Shown here: positions 6,177 to 60,950 of the stretch, in pieces | Layout of the letters: each line of letters opens with the position of its first letter | How positions within the stretch are numbered: the stretch's first letter is position 1 | Origin: Nymphaea colorata | Taxonomy: Eukaryota; Streptophyta; Magnoliopsida; Nymphaeales; Nymphaeaceae | Assembly (NCBI RefSeq): GCF_008831285.2 | Contig: NC_045138.2 | Span: 16,959,934 to 17,023,933 of the forward strand | Reading direction: 5' to 3' | DNA length: 64,000 bases | Notes under the pieces: model-generated | Told to the model about the DNA's origin: nothing | The model's database searches: none | The model's input: the letters and a program-made list of their open reading frames with translations, nothing else | Position numbers and translations under genes: made by a program

Positions 6177-8315
6177 ATGGCAAACCATGAATTGGCTCTT
6201 GGGCAGGCCCACAGCTTGGATCTGCGGCAGGCCCACACTCTAGGCCTTAGCCAAGCTCATGATTTGGCTCTGCGCCGGAGCCATGATCATAGCTTAGGCC
6301 TTGGGCACAGCCACGAGCACGAACTGGCGCTTGGCCAGAGCCATGGCCTCGCCCTCGCGCCACATCCACATGAACTGGATCTCTCGGACAACCATGGCCT
6401 TCATGGCCATGAACTCACTATTGCGGAAAATCACGAATTGGCTATGGACCACAATCCAGACTTAGGTGTCAGTAGTGGCCAGGAGCTGGTCATCTCGTCG
6501 GAGCAGCCGCCGTCAGTTGTAACTAGTCAGGCCCTTGTTACACCTATTCGTCAGTCCCGAGCTCTCGTTGCAGACCCAAGTCATGAGCTCACAGTCGGGC
6601 AGGAATTTCCTGATGTGAAGAGCTGCCGAAGAGCCTTGAGAGACGCTGCTATAGCCTTGCATTTTGAGATTCAGACCGTGAAGTCAGACAAGACAAGATT
6701 CACAGCTAAATGTGCCAGTGAAGGTTGCCCATGGCGAATTCATGCTGCAAAGCTTCCTGGCGTTCCTACTTTTACAATAAGGACTATTCATGCCCAACAT
6801 ACTTGTGAGGGCATCACACACTTGGGGCACCAGCAAGCTTCAGTTGGTTGGGTTGCCAGCTCCATGGAAGATCGTCTTCGAGAAAATCCGTCTTATAAAC
6901 CAAAAGACATACTTGAAGACATACATAGACTTCATGGGATCACCCTAACATATAAACAAGCATGGCGTGGAAAGGAACGTATAATGGCTGCTGTTCGTGG
7001 TTCATTTGAGGAAGGCTATCGTCTTCTACCACAGTATTGTGAGCAAATCAAGCGGACTAATCCTGGTAGTATTGCTTCAGTGTATGGTATAGGTCCTGAC
7101 AATTGCTTTCAGCGCTTATTTATCTCATTTTATGCTTCCATCTATGGTTTCGTAAATGCTTGCCGTCCACTCCTTGGGCTCGACCGGACAGTGTTAAAGA
7201 GCAAATATCTAGGGACCTTGCTCTTTGCTACAGGATTTGATGGTGATGGTGCATTGTTTCCACTGGCATTTGGAGTTGTTGATGAGGAAAATGAAGAGAG
7301 CTGGATGTGGTTTTTGTCTGAACTCCATAATCTGCTTGAAATGAATACTGAAAACATGCCTAGGCTAACCATCTTGTCTGATCGGCAGAAAGGCATTGTA
7401 GATGGTGTTGAAGCAAACTTTCCCACTGCATTTCATGGGTTCTGCATGCGACACCTCAGCGAAAGCTTCCGCAAAGAGTTCAACAATCCCATGCTGGTGA
7501 ACCTTCTGTGGGAGGCTGCCTATGCCCTCACTGTTATTGAGTTTGAGGCCAAAATATTAGAAATAGAAGAAATATCACAAGATGCAGCCTATTGGATCCG
7601 ACGTGTTCCACCTCGTCTTTGGGCTACTGCTTATTTTGAGGGCACAAGGTTTGGACACCTAACAGCAAACATTGTGGAGTCGTTAAATACATGGATGCTT
7701 GAGGCATCTGGATTACCAATTGTTCAGATGATGGAATCCATCCGAAGACAGTTAATGACATGGTTCAATGAAAGGAGAGAAACTAGTATGCAATGGAATT
7801 CTATCCTTGTACCATCCGCCGAAAGGCGTGTAGCTGATGCAATTGACCAGGCTCGCAATTATCAAGTTCTGCGTGCAAACGAGGCAGAATTTGAAGTTAT
7901 ATCTCATGAAGGAACCAATATTGTAGATATCCGAAACCGTTGCTGCCTTTGCCGTGGCTGGCAGTTGTATGGCTTGCCATGTTCACATGCTGTTGCAGCA
8001 CTCATCTCTTGTAGACAGAATGTTAATCGATTTACTGAGAGTTGTTTCACTGTCACAAATTATCGCAAGACCTACTCTCAGACAATTCACCCTGTTCCTG
8101 ATAAAACATTGTGGAAGGAATTGTCTGAGAATGCACAAAATGGTGGCGATAAAGTTGATATTGTAATAGCCCCACCCAAGTCTCTCCGGCCACCAGGACG
8201 CCCAAGGAAGAAAAGAGTACGTGCAGAGGATCGTGATCGTGTAAAGCGAGTTGTCCACTGTAGCCGCTGCAATCAGACAGGGCATTTTAGGACAACATGC
8301 ACGACACCTATATAA
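6177..8315 (+). CDS. MUG1: Domesticated Mutator-like transposase, MUSTANG family
   Basis: One uninterrupted 712-residue frame. Residues 4-95 are an unusual His-rich repeat with a period near 8 (variants of HxLxLGQ). Residues 144-210 form a WRKY-GCM1-type zinc finger (C179, C184, H208, C210). The MULE transposase core follows, with a complete predicted DDE triad: D336 in LDRTVLKSKY, D402 in LSDRQKG, E501 in NIVESLNTW. A SWIM zinc finger is at 590-604 (CxC then CxH), an AT-hook-like GRPRKKR at 674-680, and a CCHC zinc knuckle at 695-708. MUSTANG proteins are transposase-derived host genes of flowering plants, presumed DNA-binding nuclear regulators; their molecular role is poorly known. No terminal inverted repeats flank it, the frame is intact, and it sits beside FLK as Arabidopsis MUG1 does. 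It lacks a PB1 domain, which fits the MUG-A branch. The start is the first Met after the leader acceptor. Confidence 0.88.
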   Translation: MANHELALGQAHSLDLRQAHTLGLSQAHDLALRRSHDHSLGLGHSHEHELALGQSHGLALAPHPHELDLSDNHGLHGHELTIAENHELAMDHNPDLGVSSGQELVISSEQPPSVVTSQALVTPIRQSRALVADPSHELTVGQEFPDVKSCRRALRDAAIALHFEIQTVKSDKTRFTAKCASEGCPWRIHAAKLPGVPTFTIRTIHAQHTCEGITHLGHQQASVGWVASSMEDRLRENPSYKPKDILEDIHRLHGITLTYKQAWRGKERIMAAVRGSFEEGYRLLPQYCEQIKRTNPGSIASVYGIGPDNCFQRLFISFYASIYGFVNACRPLLGLDRTVLKSKYLGTLLFATGFDGDGALFPLAFGVVDEENEESWMWFLSELHNLLEMNTENMPRLTILSDRQKGIVDGVEANFPTAFHGFCMRHLSESFRKEFNNPMLVNLLWEAAYALTVIEFEAKILEIEEISQDAAYWIRRVPPRLWATAYFEGTRFGHLTANIVESLNTWMLEASGLPIVQMMESIRRQLMTWFNERRETSMQWNSILVPSAERRVADAIDQARNYQVLRANEAEFEVISHEGTNIVDIRNRCCLCRGWQLYGLPCSHAVAALISCRQNVNRFTESCFTVTNYRKTYSQTIHPVPDKTLWKELSENAQNGGDKVDIVIAPPKSLRPPGRPRKKRVRAEDRDRVKRVVHCSRCNQTGHFRTTCTTPI

Positions 8316-15100: not shown

Positions 15101-17728
15101 ATGCATACAGAATTCCATCACAACAGGTTATGTGATGTGCACAATGTAGTGTTCAAAACATGCCATTTGCTTCTTTATATTTCTGAGTATTGTATCACCA
15201 CATAAGCATTGTTGATGACAACATGAATCTGGTAGGAAACATGAAATACTACTAAAATGATTAACTATGCTATGTTTTGAAAGTAGTCATATGTAGCTTA
15301 TTAAGAATCCATATGCAGACAACCAGCAAGAGATTCATAAATTTCTAGCAGTGAAGCAGGAAATTTAGTAATATTAACTATTAAGACTAGAATTCAAGCA
15401 TTGGCACCTTAACAGACTAAGCAACACAAGAGAAAAGCTTTCCACTACAGCAGTCCACGAAACCAAAATCATACAAGTTAATATCTAATAGAGCCAAAAA
15501 CCCATCAAAAAAGCTGTCATAAAATAAAATGAATTACCGTAAGATGATTGTGTGGGAAAAAATGATAAATAAATACAAACAGGCAATGGGCAGCATTCCA
15601 CGAAAAACTAACATTATACCAGTTAATATCTGATAGGGTCAAAAGGGCCATCAGATAAAACTGTTACAATACAACATAAAGTGAATTACTATAAGGGGAT
15701 TGTGTGAAAAAAATATAAATAAATATCAACAGGCAATGGTTGCATCATAAAGGAAAGAGTAAAACAACATAACACGACACTTTTAAAAAACACCTGTACC
15801 AAGAACACGGACGGTGCAGTTTGATGCCTCTTGAATGGACTTTATTGTAGCTCCCTGTTTCCCAATCAGGCTTCCAGCCTGGGTAGCAGCAACCAGAAGT
15901 CGTGTTGAAATCATTCCACCTCCACTTGGTGGGGCATGGCCAGATTCACCATCTAAACCATCAATAATACGTTTGTGAACTCTCAGAAGGCCATCCATTG
16001 CTGGAGAAATTGAAGCATCCTGCTCCTCCTTTGCTGAAATAATAACCTTAAAGATGTACAAACAACATGCAGAAAGATAAGTTAGACTATGTGCAAATCT
16101 AAACGGATGTTAAAAATTAAAAAAACTCCTTTTTTTGGGCAAACCAGGCAAAAGCAGAAAAGAAACTGGGGAGAAACTCAGGATATTAGAAGTTTTTCAA
16201 AATATGAATTGAAGAGTACATTTGGATTCCTCAGGCAACTAAACTTATTTAGAGAAGAAGGGACACATTTTATCTGCATTTCTTCAGACAACTGAGTTTA
16301 AAAAGTAGAAACATAATTAACACTGTAAAAGGAATATAAAGTAACTAAAATTTTCTGTATTAAATAAATCAAGTTGGTTTACATTTTGTAAGTCGTCAAT
16401 ATACCTTGACGGTGGCAATTCATGTGATAACTGACAAGACTGTTGACATTCAACAAAACAATGGAATTAAAGTACAGACATATAGGAGTGTATGTGTTTT
16501 ATAATCCCATAAATTTAAATCTGATTAACAACAATCTCATCATGTCAACTAGCACCAGCAGGATTGCTTTACAACTTACAAAAAGCAAAGTTGAGAAGTG
16601 ATTCATTCTTTCTGTCCTCCAGCACAGCTAATGACAGTAATTTGCTTAAAACAGGAAATGGACATATTCCAAAGAATGTCAACTGCTTGATGCCCCAGTG
16701 AATTTGAGAAGATCAAGCACAGAGGAGGAGGAGGAGGAGGTGGTGGAGGGAAGGGGTGAAGGAGGCATGGGAAGAGAGAGAGATTGCAGCACAGACAAAG
16801 GCCAAAAGAGACCTTCTTAAAAACCTAGTTTCAGACAAAATCACCGAAACATGAGACGCTTGAAACCAAAAAAATATTATTATGATGATAATGTAGACAA
16901 CGCCTTAAAGTGTTAATAAGCCAAAGGTAATACACGTCCAGATTACCACCGCTGAAAAATAATATGATGAAGACCATAACATAGGTATTTTCAACAGCTC
17001 GATATTAATGATATGTACCCCTGCCTTACCCACTGTAACCCACATGGTACTCATTGACGTGTTCGTGCATGTGTTGTACCCCTGCCTTACCCACTGTAAC
17101 CCACATGGTACTCATTGATGTATTCGTGCATGTGTAGTGTATCAGCACCTGCACCTACATAGCTGATGAACCAAAGGAAGCAAGAAAAGGAAAAGTAGAA
17201 AGCCATGAAGAAAGAAAATAAAATATGCCATAAGTAAAAGCAGGAGACATGCCACGATAGAAAGGAAAGATAACTGCTTCATAATCAAGCACCTTATATC
17301 TTTACAAAGTGGCATCCAAAAAACACCAAGAATATGAGAAGCTACTTGCTGGTGCCTACACTTAATATATGCATCTACCACAGTACGTTTGCACTAAAAT
17401 AGCCTTTATCAACTCTAACAAAATAGGAGCAACACGAACTCACAGCTCTTTCCGGTGCACCTGGAACACCATCAAGAATCTTAATGCGTGCCCTGCTCTC
17501 CTCACACATCTTTTTGATGAACTCTCCTTTTCTACCAATAATACCACCAACTTTCTGTGCAGGAACCAGCAGACGGAAGACACTCTCCCCCGGCCATCCA
17601 GGCCACCTTTTATCACTACCACCTCCAGCACCTACCTCATCATCACGGGCCCTTTTTTGGTTAGAATGTGTATTCCCAGGCACTCCGGCCGTTTCTTGAT
17701 CAGAAAATGTTTCGGCAGAGGCAGCCAT
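12138..17728 (-). CDS. FLK: FLK-type RNA-binding protein with three KH domains
   Basis: Six coding exons, in gene order: 17728-17444, 16046-15794, 14004-13856, 13656-13390, 13265-13071, 12314-12138. Together they give 441 residues ending GGNYGY. KH1 spans about 49-115 with GRKG at 65-68; KH2 about 142-215 with GKQG at 157-160; KH3 about 323-389 with GAGG at 335-338. A Pro/Gly/Tyr-rich linker (230-318) separates KH2 and KH3, and the tail is Tyr/Gly/Pro-rich. The WPGWPGE lead-in to KH1 and the [13 protein letters not shown] opening of KH3 are typical of FLK and its relative PEPPER; linker and tail favour FLK. In Arabidopsis FLK is a nuclear protein of the autonomous flowering pathway that lowers FLC expression. 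All borders are GT-AG except the exon ending at 13856, where only a GC donor keeps the frame. The start lies 10 bases into the exon that follows the long leader intron. Confidence 0.92.
17015..17136. repeat. Tandem duplication of 61 bases in FLK intron 2
   Basis: Units 17015-17075 and 17076-17136 begin GTACCCCTGCC and differ at very few positions. They lie in the intron between the first two coding exons, with no obvious role. Confidence 0.92.
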
Positions 17729-18194
17729 AATATAATATCTGTTGAACAAGAATTAAAAGCCTGATCAGCCTATTTCACATCCACAGGAATGCTAGAAGCA
17801 GAACTATGAGTTCCATAATGAATCAGCAATTTGGGATATATATCGATAAAACACATATGAGAACTGGACTGACATTTTCCGCCAATAGTTGGAGAAAACA
17901 AATATAGGAACATGGTGTGCCAATTAGAAGTACTACAAAGTACAACCAACAAAAATAATCTAAAGGCATGTTTCATGATTAAATGAAATACTAAAAATCA
18001 TACACATAATTTGCTAGAACAATTGAAGGTGAAAGAAATGCAAATTAATATCTAACATATCTAATTTAGGGAGTCAGAGTCTCCAGTTTCCTAGATTATT
18101 CACCGAGCAAGCACAAGCCTCAGATTCAAGGTGTGTTTGCCACTTTAAGTATAGAATTCACATTTCAGCGTTGCCGAAAGAGAAATGTCATCAC

Positions 18195-58760: not shown

Positions 58761-58870
58761 TCAAGTATTTAAGGACTCAAACCAGCCAAAATGCAAAATA
58801 ATGCATGTCCCAAGTGAAGCTCCAAACACAGAGGAACTCCGTCTCCCTCTCTCTCACTCTCCCCCTCTCT

Positions 58871-59014
58871 CTAGTTGAGGGGACTGTTGTCTGGTTCGAG
58901 ACCATTCATGTTCAACAAATGACATGGATGATCTCGGACCAGGCTTCATTCCCCCCAACATGTTCAGGAACTAAGATCAGTGAGTTCTGATCAGGTTTCA
59001 TTCTCCTCAACTAG
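58871..59014 (+). ncRNA. MIR166: MIR166 microRNA precursor
   Basis: The mature miR166 sits at 58934-58954 and matches the canonical 21-mer exactly (starts TCGGACCAGG, ends CATTCCCC). The opposing strand (miR166*) is 58881-58901, starting GGACTGTTG. It pairs with the usual small internal loop and leaves 2-base 3' overhangs on both sides, as Dicer cutting requires. The stem continues inward (CATTCATGT with ACATGGATG) to a loop near 58911-58920 and outward (GTTGAGGGG with CCCCCCAAC). miR166 directs cleavage of HD-ZIP III mRNAs (PHB, PHV, REV, CNA, ATHB8), setting leaf polarity, meristem and vascular patterning. A second, mutated miR166-like 21-mer lies at 58986-59006, and CCTCAACTAG after it pairs perfectly with 58871-58880, so the precursor could fold two ways. 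Confidence 0.95.
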
Positions 59015-60950
59015 CGAAAATTTTTCAGCAATATCCATAGTGGCAGAGCTCTCTCCTTCAATGCCTTCCCTTGTTAAAGAATTCCTGTGGGTCTTATTAT
59101 TTCATTTCTAGCAGACTGCAGGTAATAGCAAAGTCTCTTTTTATTGTTTTTGCAATGTATTTCAACTTGTCCTTAACAAAGTATGTGCAATTTCAATTCT
59201 TGTTCTGTACAAATCCTGTCGAGGGGAGTTAATTACATCAAAAGCATCCTATGTGCGCAAAAAATCTACCTATGATGAAGAAAGGTCAGTGCTAAAGTAG
59301 CTTAATTAATTTCTCAAAGTCTTTTCTTGTTTGTGAGATCTTAGCATGCTTTTTCTTGTTCATTTATCTACTTATTGGCTGAGAAACCACAATGAAAACC
59401 TGCCGTATCTTTCGTTTCAGTTCTACCAAACACTGGAAATGTTGCCTAAAAGCCTGGATTTTCAGACTTCTGGATATTTCTGGTCATGCTGTAAGTTATG
59501 TTGGAAACAACTTTCTTTTGCCTCTTTGTGTACTGTCAACCAAGAAGGCTTCTGCTTTTTCCACTTTGACTGTTACCATTGTGCTGCCTACTAACTTTCA
59601 TTTTATTTTCTTCTCCTACCACCTTATTGTTTATGGAATCAATCTCAATAAGAGCCTAGTCTTGAATGGTAGTTGGAGTAGATGGCATGCACTTTTTCTT
59701 CTTCAAGTTGTATGTGAAAAATCATAACAATGTTTGGAAAGGAAAAAAGAAAAAGCAAAGAAGGTAAAAAGGAAGGGGATGGGGCATTTTCTGTCTCTGT
59801 GTGTGCCATGCTGTGCTATCATGGTGGAACCGTACAGTATGTGGTAGAAGATGGCGACGTAAGTGAACTCTCTCGTAGGATACACAAATATTTGCATTTT
59901 ATAGTTTTTTTACATTATTAAAAAGCAAGAGAAAAATGCCAATTATTGTAGATTAAATAGAGCCATCAAGCTCTTTAATTGATTTCAATGATAGAAAACT
60001 CCACCATTACTTAGGGAAATACCATCTGAACACAGTTAAATATGGAGACAGAGATAAACCATGTGAACACAATTAATCATGGAGACAGAGAATGAAAGAA
60101 GAAACGGAAAATATGTTTCCTGATCAGTTTTTTCTTGTGACATTTTTAGGCGCTGCGTTCATCAATAGCCGAGTTTCCAGGAACCACTTTTAAACATCAT
60201 TTATTAAATGCTGGGTATGGTGCATGATACCTTCATCTAATAGCTCAGCTACATTTCCTTCCTAGTTGCATGATACGGCTGAATTTCATTAATCGTTACT
60301 GCCAAACAAGGAAAACAATTATGAGTCGCAGTTTATACTAATGCGCAGAAAGAAAGCTTTGTTTGTGAGATCAATGTTACTGGAGTCGAACAATTCCAAC
60401 TGAAGCGGTGCCAAACAGATTTGGTTCAATAGCTGATTCAAGAGCGACAAGTGCCATTTTTAATTGTTTCTTAGACATTTCTTTAAGTTCTGTTAATTTA
60501 AAATTAATCCTTATATGTTTTTTCTAAAACTCTCACTGTGTTTCTGTATCCAATGTTACTCACCTCGATAACTCTCTTAACAAGTCTAGAGAAGCACAGA
60601 TTCAAGAATTTTTCTAATTAACTTATCCTTAAGAATTCGAGAGTTCATCTATGTTTAAGAATGTACCTTTTCTTGTTGTTGTAGCCCAATAGATATGTAC
60701 TTCACTTGCTTAAGACTCTAGAGCCTCATTAAGTTAATTCAATTTAAACCATGTTGCCGAATAGAAAAAGTAACAATGAATGCGTGAACAAATGAAAACC
60801 TGTGAGGGCAGCTGCAATTATAATTCGGTGGACCATCCGGGGAGGGTTAGAAGTAGTGCGATCAGAAACAGCCATAAATGCATTATGTGTGTCTCTCAAA
60901 CAAATGGAATCGAGTACGGTTAAAAATCGACAAAGCTCTCTATCAGATTT
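59015..60950. other. Intergenic DNA, possibly the 3' part of the MIR166 transcript
   Basis: No gene is recognised. Small open frames near 59346-59730 have no family resemblance. Plant MIR166 primary transcripts often run several hundred bases past the hairpin, but no end is visible. Confidence 0.45.

What the first reader, a model, noticed from the sequence alone, without database searches (positions are those of the whole stretch)
58871..59014. MIR166 precursor with a second, mutated miR166-like site that competes for the same arm
A canonical MIR166 hairpin is followed 31 bases later by a 21-mer at 58986-59006 that matches miR166 at 17 of 21 positions (changes at 3, 6, 11 and 19). The ten bases CCTCAACTAG (59005-59014) pair perfectly with CTAGTTGAGG (58871-58880), just upstream of the star strand. 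The 5' arm could therefore pair with either 3' arm. This looks like a duplicated 3' arm decaying or diverging into a new small RNA, or a built-in alternative fold that tunes processing.
Basis: partly seen in the sequence, partly recalled or inferred. Interest (0 to 1): 0.75.

Follow-up and report, generated by a model that had tools for sequence, protein, structure and literature searches.

The report
MIR166 gene with duplicated 3' arm
A plant microRNA gene (MIR166) carries an old, mutated second copy of half of its own hairpin, probably a decaying duplication whose last few bases may still pair at the base of the hairpin.

Summary
Window 58874-58959 is a MIR166 hairpin (Rfam RF00075, 79.1 bits) with a perfect miR166 at 58934-58954. 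The 21-mer at 58986-59006 matches it at 17 of 21. It belongs to a larger repeat: 58908-58959 and 58960-59011 form a gapless head-to-tail 52-bp tandem repeat, 37/52 identical, with loop and 3' arm but no second 5' arm.

Competition for the whole 5' arm is not supported. The star region stays with copy 1 (0.996-0.999), and barring that costs 23.9 kcal/mol. Only the lower stem is exchanged: 58868-58883 is predicted to pair with the end of copy 2, giving a Y-shaped precursor. Copy 2's own hairpin has 12 pairs, and 8-10% of random decays fold as stably, so a new small RNA is unlikely on structure.

At least nine MIR166 hairpins were found in the host genome; only this one has the duplication. No related species or small-RNA reads were available, so a function for copy 2 is untested.

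The parts
58874..58959 (+). MIR166 hairpin, canonical
   Evidence: Rfam RF00075, 79.1 bits against a gathering score of 60, full model length; folds alone at -51.9 kcal/mol
58934..58954 (+). mature miR166, TCGGACCAGGCTTCATTCCCC
   Evidence: 0 mismatches to miR166; the same 21-mer in 5 of the 9 MIR166 hairpins found in the genome, this one included
58881..58901 (+). miR166 star strand, inferred from a 2-nt 3' overhang on the predicted pairs
   Evidence: pairs; position is inference, no reads
58908..58959 (+). copy 1 of the 52-bp tandem duplication (end of the 5' upper stem, loop, 3' arm)
   Evidence: 37/52 identical, gapless, to 58960-59011
58960..59011 (+). copy 2 of the duplication, directly adjacent to copy 1
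   Evidence: leaving it out in silico gives a plain MIR166 hairpin with a longer lower stem
58986..59006 (+). miR166-like 21-mer in copy 2 (changes at 3, 6, 11, 19)
   Evidence: 4 changes of 21 is what neutral decay of copy 2 alone predicts (P of 4 or fewer = 0.47)
58868..58883 (+). 5' side of the extended lower stem of the Y-fold
   Evidence: paired with 59002-59017 in the MFE; 58871-58878 at P 0.96-0.99; mean 0.83-0.99 at 15-42 C and 0.84-0.94 in six longer contexts
59002..59017 (+). 3' side of the extended lower stem: end of copy 2 and the first bases of the flank
58967..58999 (+). small local hairpin of copy 2, 12 pairs
   Evidence: -12.8 kcal/mol; 9 of the 12 pairs are not standard pairs at the same places of copy 1; 316 or 403 of 4000 random decays of copy 1 fold as stably

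Best explanation
This is a plant MIR166 gene in which a 52-bp piece, the loop and 3' arm, was duplicated head to tail (the repeat is shown; the event is inferred). Copy 1 keeps a perfect miR166 and pairs with the single 5' arm, so it is the predicted source of the miRNA (pairing computed, function inferred from the family). Copy 2 has drifted: its miR166-like 21-mer has four changes and is partly taken up in a short local hairpin, so it should give no miRNA (inferred). Because copy 2 sits next to the original 3' flank, its end is the natural partner of the 5' lower stem, and the full transcript is predicted to fold as a Y whose lower stem is made with copy 2 (computed). Modelled transcripts that end before 59014 lack this pairing and mostly have the ordinary short lower stem; the exchange appears once 59014-59017 are made (computed). 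Whether this affects DCL1 cutting is unknown. Most likely copy 2 is a tolerated relic in a genome with other copies of the same mature miR166.
For: Gapless 37/52 tandem repeat with exactly adjacent copies, 16/26 in the loop half. The two dicistrons of the genome show only 5 and 7 of 26 in the loop half at their register, and at best 11 and 10 with shifts of up to 10. No second star-like arm: the best 21-mer in 58902-59120 agrees with the star at 11 of 21, as 1239 of 2000 shuffles do. Leaving copy 2 out in silico gives a MIR166 hairpin with the lower stem continued through CTAG. Y-fold -70.7 kcal/mol, z -6.0 for the whole 181-nt piece, against -68.0 without basal pairing to copy 2. Star region with copy 1 at 0.996-0.999. 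Copy 2's 21-mer shows 4 of 21 changes, as expected for neutral drift, and its weakened duplex with the 5' arm is ordinary for random decay (1354 of 4000 as weak or weaker). The mature 21-mer is present in four other hairpins.
Against: No orthologue was available, so the age and the ancestral state are inferred. The loop-half match is modest: 16 unrelated positions of the 64-kb window reach it in a free scan. All 13 basal pairs would survive the same neutral decay in only 8.1% (5' side fixed) or 0.7% (both sides free) of simulations, which hints that the base may not be a mere relic. All structures are thermodynamic predictions without proteins, and the lower-stem exchange rests on 2.7 kcal/mol.
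Confidence: 0.72

Rival explanations
1. [quoted passage not shown]
For: 13 contiguous basal pairs with copy 2 and a low chance of neutral survival (8.1% or 0.7%). Copy 2 has the T (59007) that pairs with A58878 and agrees with the Rfam consensus, while copy 1 has a C (58955) there. The exchange is predicted at 15-42 C and in six longer contexts. It lengthens the lower stem below the star from 7 to 13 nt (folds); a first cut 15-17 nt from the base is reported for base-to-loop precursors (PMC9893293, passages).
Against: The ordinary short lower stem (6 pairs in 7 nt) is typical here: six of the seven other hairpins that could be scored have 4-8 pairs within 6-9 nt, the seventh 17 within 20; and five of those seven have an unpaired base at the same place as A58878. 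So nothing needs restoring. The neutral simulation assumes a perfectly paired ancestor and takes its rate from 26 sites. The gain is 2.7 kcal/mol. Odds lowered from 0.17 to 0.15 on recheck because of the sister-locus mismatch.
Confidence: 0.15
2. Remnant of a MIR166 dicistron: the second hairpin lost its own 5' arm, leaving a decayed 3' arm.
For: The genome has two MIR166 dicistrons; soybean has four such clusters with EST support (PMC5286673, passages), and miR166 clusters are reported in other plants (PMC2812943, passages).
Against: The matures are 52 nt apart, against 195 and 231 nt in the two dicistrons. The loop half aligns gaplessly here (16/26) but not there (5 and 7 of 26). No star-like sequence above chance follows the first star.
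Confidence: 0.07
3. Copy 2 makes its own diverged small RNA with new targets.
For: The reverse complement of the 21-mer has 17 sites with 3 mismatches in the genome besides its own locus, against 6 for the pattern read backwards; the bare duplex of the 5' arm with copy 2 and its flank is still -32.4 kcal/mol.
Against: The local hairpin has only 12 pairs, too short for a 21-nt duplex. The star region stays with copy 1. The number of changes fits neutral drift. The genomic sites were not checked for transcription.
Confidence: 0.03
4. Chance resemblance.
For: 10-nt inverted repeats are common (50 clusters in the window), and 16/26 alone is met at 16 unrelated places.
Against: 0 of 3000 shuffles reach 17/21, and the same register also carries the loop half.
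Confidence: 0.01

Closest known systems
MIR166 family (Rfam RF00075)
   Same: full-length match above the curated score, perfect mature sequence
   Different: an extra 52-nt copy of loop plus 3' arm follows directly; none of the other eight MIR166 hairpins found in this genome has one
MIR166 dicistrons (soybean MIR166e/q and others, PMC5286673, passages; two loci of this genome)
   Same: two miR166-like 3' arms close together, probably in one transcript
   Different: dicistrons have two complete hairpins, matures 195 and 231 nt apart here; this locus has one 5' arm and two 3' arms, 52 nt apart
pri-miR166c with a branched terminal loop (Zhu et al. 2013, seen only through passages of the review PMC9893293)
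   Same: branched MIR166 precursor
   Different: the predicted branch here is at the base, below the miRNA duplex, not in the terminal loop

Membership tests
MIR166 (RF00075) | covariance-model match above the gathering score | tested here: met
   79.1 bits against 60
MIR166 (RF00075) | mature miR166 in the 3' arm, paired with a star strand | tested here: met
   0 mismatches; star region 58889-58901 paired with copy 1 at 0.996-0.999; prediction only
MIR166 (RF00075) | 21-nt miRNA and star reads with 2-nt overhangs, DCL1-dependent | not testable with these tools
   no small-RNA data
MIR166 (RF00075) | targets HD-ZIP III mRNAs | tested here: inconclusive
   a recalled target pattern has 0 contiguous genomic matches with up to 1 mismatch; from memory the site spans a splice junction, so this says nothing
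MIR166 dicistron | two complete hairpins, each with its own 5' arm | tested here: not met
   one RF00075 match in the window; no second star-like arm above chance in 58902-59120; loop half unlike the genome's dicistrons
precursor with branched terminal loop | branching between the miRNA duplex and the end of the hairpin | tested here: not met
   the terminal loop is a simple 8-nt loop in the MFE; the branch is basal

The most novel reading that the evidence does not exclude
A half-hairpin duplication has split one 3' arm into two jobs: copy 1 carries the miRNA and copy 2 carries the lower stem. The precursor first folds as a plain hairpin and then, once copy 2 is transcribed, exchanges its lower stem for a Y-fold, so that co-transcriptional and later processing see different bases.
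Probability: 0.1. Interest if true: 0.7.

Novelty: new variant of a known kind. Interest (0 to 1): 0.33.

Why it matters
MIRNA genes are known to multiply by copying whole hairpins, as in the MIR166 clusters (PMC5286673, PMC2812943, passages). A duplication of only half a hairpin makes two 3' arms for one 5' arm. In a modelled perfect duplicate the distal copy takes the 5' arm (P 0.98), whereas today the proximal copy does, so the locus is a natural experiment in how a precursor settles which arm is used and what becomes of the loser. It would also let one test in a native gene whether DCL1 tolerates a lower stem whose two sides are not continuous with the miRNA duplex. If the copy is only a relic, as I think most likely, it is a tidy but minor curiosity.

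Tried and rejected
Scanning viral and bacterial collections for miR166 as a route to related plant sequence gave 0 viral contigs (21 bases) and 8 stretches in bacterial contigs (18 bases); these eight were not examined and are taken as chance. Strings of the two sites and of the hairpin were sought in the paper library: 0 papers. A search for internal or arm duplication in MIR166 precursors gave 0 papers with at least four of five terms. A broader one gave 12 papers, 10 listed; I saw titles and starts of abstracts only, and three of those listed concern MIRNA duplication or birth and death in general and were not opened. Other listings: 21 papers, 20 listed; 48, 20 listed; 15, 12 listed. Passages of a cassava miRNA paper (PMC4730657) were seen and not used. 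So I know of no printed case, within those searches only. The species was guessed as a water lily from the assembly size (recall); a paper search on that guess gave 4 papers, none opened, and the guess is untested.

Selection for copy 2's local hairpin was considered and dropped: the 35-nt piece chosen around it beats shuffles (6 of 1000 as low), but copy 2 as a whole does not (100 of 1000), and random decay of copy 1 folds as stably in 316 or 403 of 4000 trials. That the lower stem of copy 1 is abnormally short or mismatched was dropped after the comparison with sister loci (there the window's own hairpin and L015 could not be scored, and L016's count includes a jump to another helix). A paralogue with the same duplication was sought by DNA similarity: besides the locus itself only a MIR166 hairpin on C10 matched, 73% over the hairpin.

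Full report
What is there. The window lies in an assembly of 407,766,735 bases in 783 contigs, at C1:16959934-17023933; that it is a plant is inferred from MIR166. One Rfam family passes its gathering score in the window: MIR166 at 58874-58959, 79.1 bits, full model. Three of the four are C to T. The inverted repeat is exact and is part of 13 contiguous standard pairs between 58871-58883 and 59002-59014.

What it is. The two sites are 52 nt apart, and the same register holds over a whole 52-nt unit: 58908-58959 against 58960-59011, gapless, 37 of 52 identical, copies exactly adjacent. The 3' arm half agrees at 21 of 26 and the loop half at 16 of 26. For the loop half, 7 of 20000 mononucleotide shuffles and 3 of 20000 random window segments reach 16 at a fixed register. 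In a free scan of the window 18 positions reach 16, two of them the segment itself and copy 2, so the fixed register is what carries the weight. No second star-like arm follows: the best 21-mer in 58902-59120 has 11 of 21 agreements with the star, and 1239 of 2000 shuffles do as well. The simplest reading is a head-to-tail duplication of the end of the 5' upper stem, the loop and the 3' arm. Leaving copy 2 out in silico gives an ordinary MIR166 hairpin with the lower stem continued through CTAGTTG/CAACTAG, as expected if copy 2 stands next to the original 3' flank.

Comparison inside the genome. The search gave 18 matches to RF00075, which are 9 hairpins each seen on both strands; 7 of the 9 pass the gathering score on the proper strand. 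Only 45 of 68,835 candidates were scored, so nine is a lower bound. Four of the nine hairpins form two dicistrons, matures 195 and 231 nt apart. With offsets of 20-400, the 52-nt segment of the window's locus matches itself at 37 (offset 52); the other eight reach 21, 22, 23, 21, 28, 31, 23 and 22, where 28 and 31 are the dicistron mates. In the dicistrons the loop halves agree at only 5 and 7 of 26 at the mates' register, 11 and 10 at best with shifts up to 10. By local alignment score the window's locus has no close partner among the nine (at most 50), while the two dicistrons, L011/L013 and L016/L017 pair up (87 or more). A DNA search with 451 bases around it found only itself and a 73% match over the hairpin on C10. 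The same mature 21-mer occurs in 5 of the 9 hairpins, this one included.

How it folds. The 181-nt piece folds at -70.7 kcal/mol, z -6.0, 0 of 200 shuffles as low, as a Y: the MIR166 hairpin with copy 1, a small hairpin in copy 2 (58967-58999), and an extended lower stem of 58868-58883 with 59002-59017. Barring the 5' side from copy 2 costs 2.7 kcal/mol (-68.0); barring the 5' arm from copy 1 costs 23.9 (-46.8). The star region 58889-58901 stays with copy 1 at 0.996-0.999, and only the lower stem goes to copy 2. At 58879-58883 the two partners share (0.28-0.64 with copy 1). The lower-stem pairing with copy 2 has mean probability 0.83-0.99 at 15-42 C and 0.84-0.94 in six longer contexts. In eight modelled transcripts ending at 58959-59011 it is absent; the ordinary lower stem with copy 1 then has 0.88-0.99 in seven of them and 0.47 at end point 59000. 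At 59014 the pairing with copy 2 is 0.64 and at 59017 0.94. These are equilibrium folds of truncated transcripts, not kinetics.

How it most likely works. Copy 1 gives miR166 (inferred from family membership). Copy 2 is drifting: 4 of 21 changes is what the loop-half divergence predicts for one free lineage (P of 4 or fewer 0.47). Its small hairpin, 9 of whose 12 pairs are not standard at the same places of copy 1, needs no selection, since 316 or 403 of 4000 random decays of copy 1 fold as stably. A modelled perfect duplicate gives the 5' arm to copy 2 (P 0.98; it assumes that today's copy 1 is the ancestral sequence), so decay of copy 2 would have handed the 5' arm to copy 1. The base of copy 2 is the one part that may be held: all 13 pairs would survive the same decay in 8.1% of trials with the 5' side fixed and 0.7% with both sides free. 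Copy 2 also has the base that fits the Rfam consensus pair at A58878, where copy 1 has a C. Against this, the plain lower stem of this hairpin (6 pairs in 7 nt) is like that of six of the seven sister hairpins that could be scored, and five of those seven have an unpaired base at the same place, so the extension is not needed to make it normal.

Known background. [quoted passage not shown] the original paper is not held). Different processing modes are reported within the miR166 family (PMC8688358, passages). Prolonged heat is reported to change R-loop patterns at MIR165a, 166a and 166b among others and to reduce co-transcriptional processing (PMC9023350, passages). Polycistronic MIR166 precursors are reported in soybean (PMC5286673, passages) and miR166 clusters in other plants (PMC2812943, passages). 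These make a lower-stem switch worth testing but do not show it here.

Verdict. A MIR166 gene with an internal half-hairpin tandem duplication, most likely a decaying relic that still pairs at its base. It is a new variant of a known kind and of moderate interest. The decisive data, orthologues and small-RNA reads, could not be had with these tools: the genome has no relatives in the collection.

Noticed in passing
window 6177-8315 (+): A single open frame of 712 aa with MuDR DNA-binding, MULE transposase and SWIM zinc-finger domains; from memory it resembles the domesticated MUSTANG transposase genes of flowering plants.
   Followed up: partly
window 17375-17752 (-): An exon-like open frame with a KH RNA-binding domain (PF00013).
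   Followed up: no
L009/L014 (C8) and L012/L015 (C10): Two MIR166 dicistrons, each with a ...TCCCT mature first and a ...TCCCC mature second, 195 and 231 nt apart, on two large contigs; they look like a duplicated pair.
   Followed up: partly
L016 (C2) and L017 (C1): Two MIR166-like hairpins just under the Rfam cut-off (58.3 and 57.6 bits) with the mature ending TCCTC and an unusual star arm (GGAATGAAGTTTG...), by eye close to the complement of miR166 itself.
   Followed up: no
window 58766-58774 and 59119-59128: A TATA-like TATTTAAGG about 100 nt before the hairpin and a possible 5' splice site (CAG/GTAATAG) about 110 nt after copy 2, by eye only.
   Followed up: no
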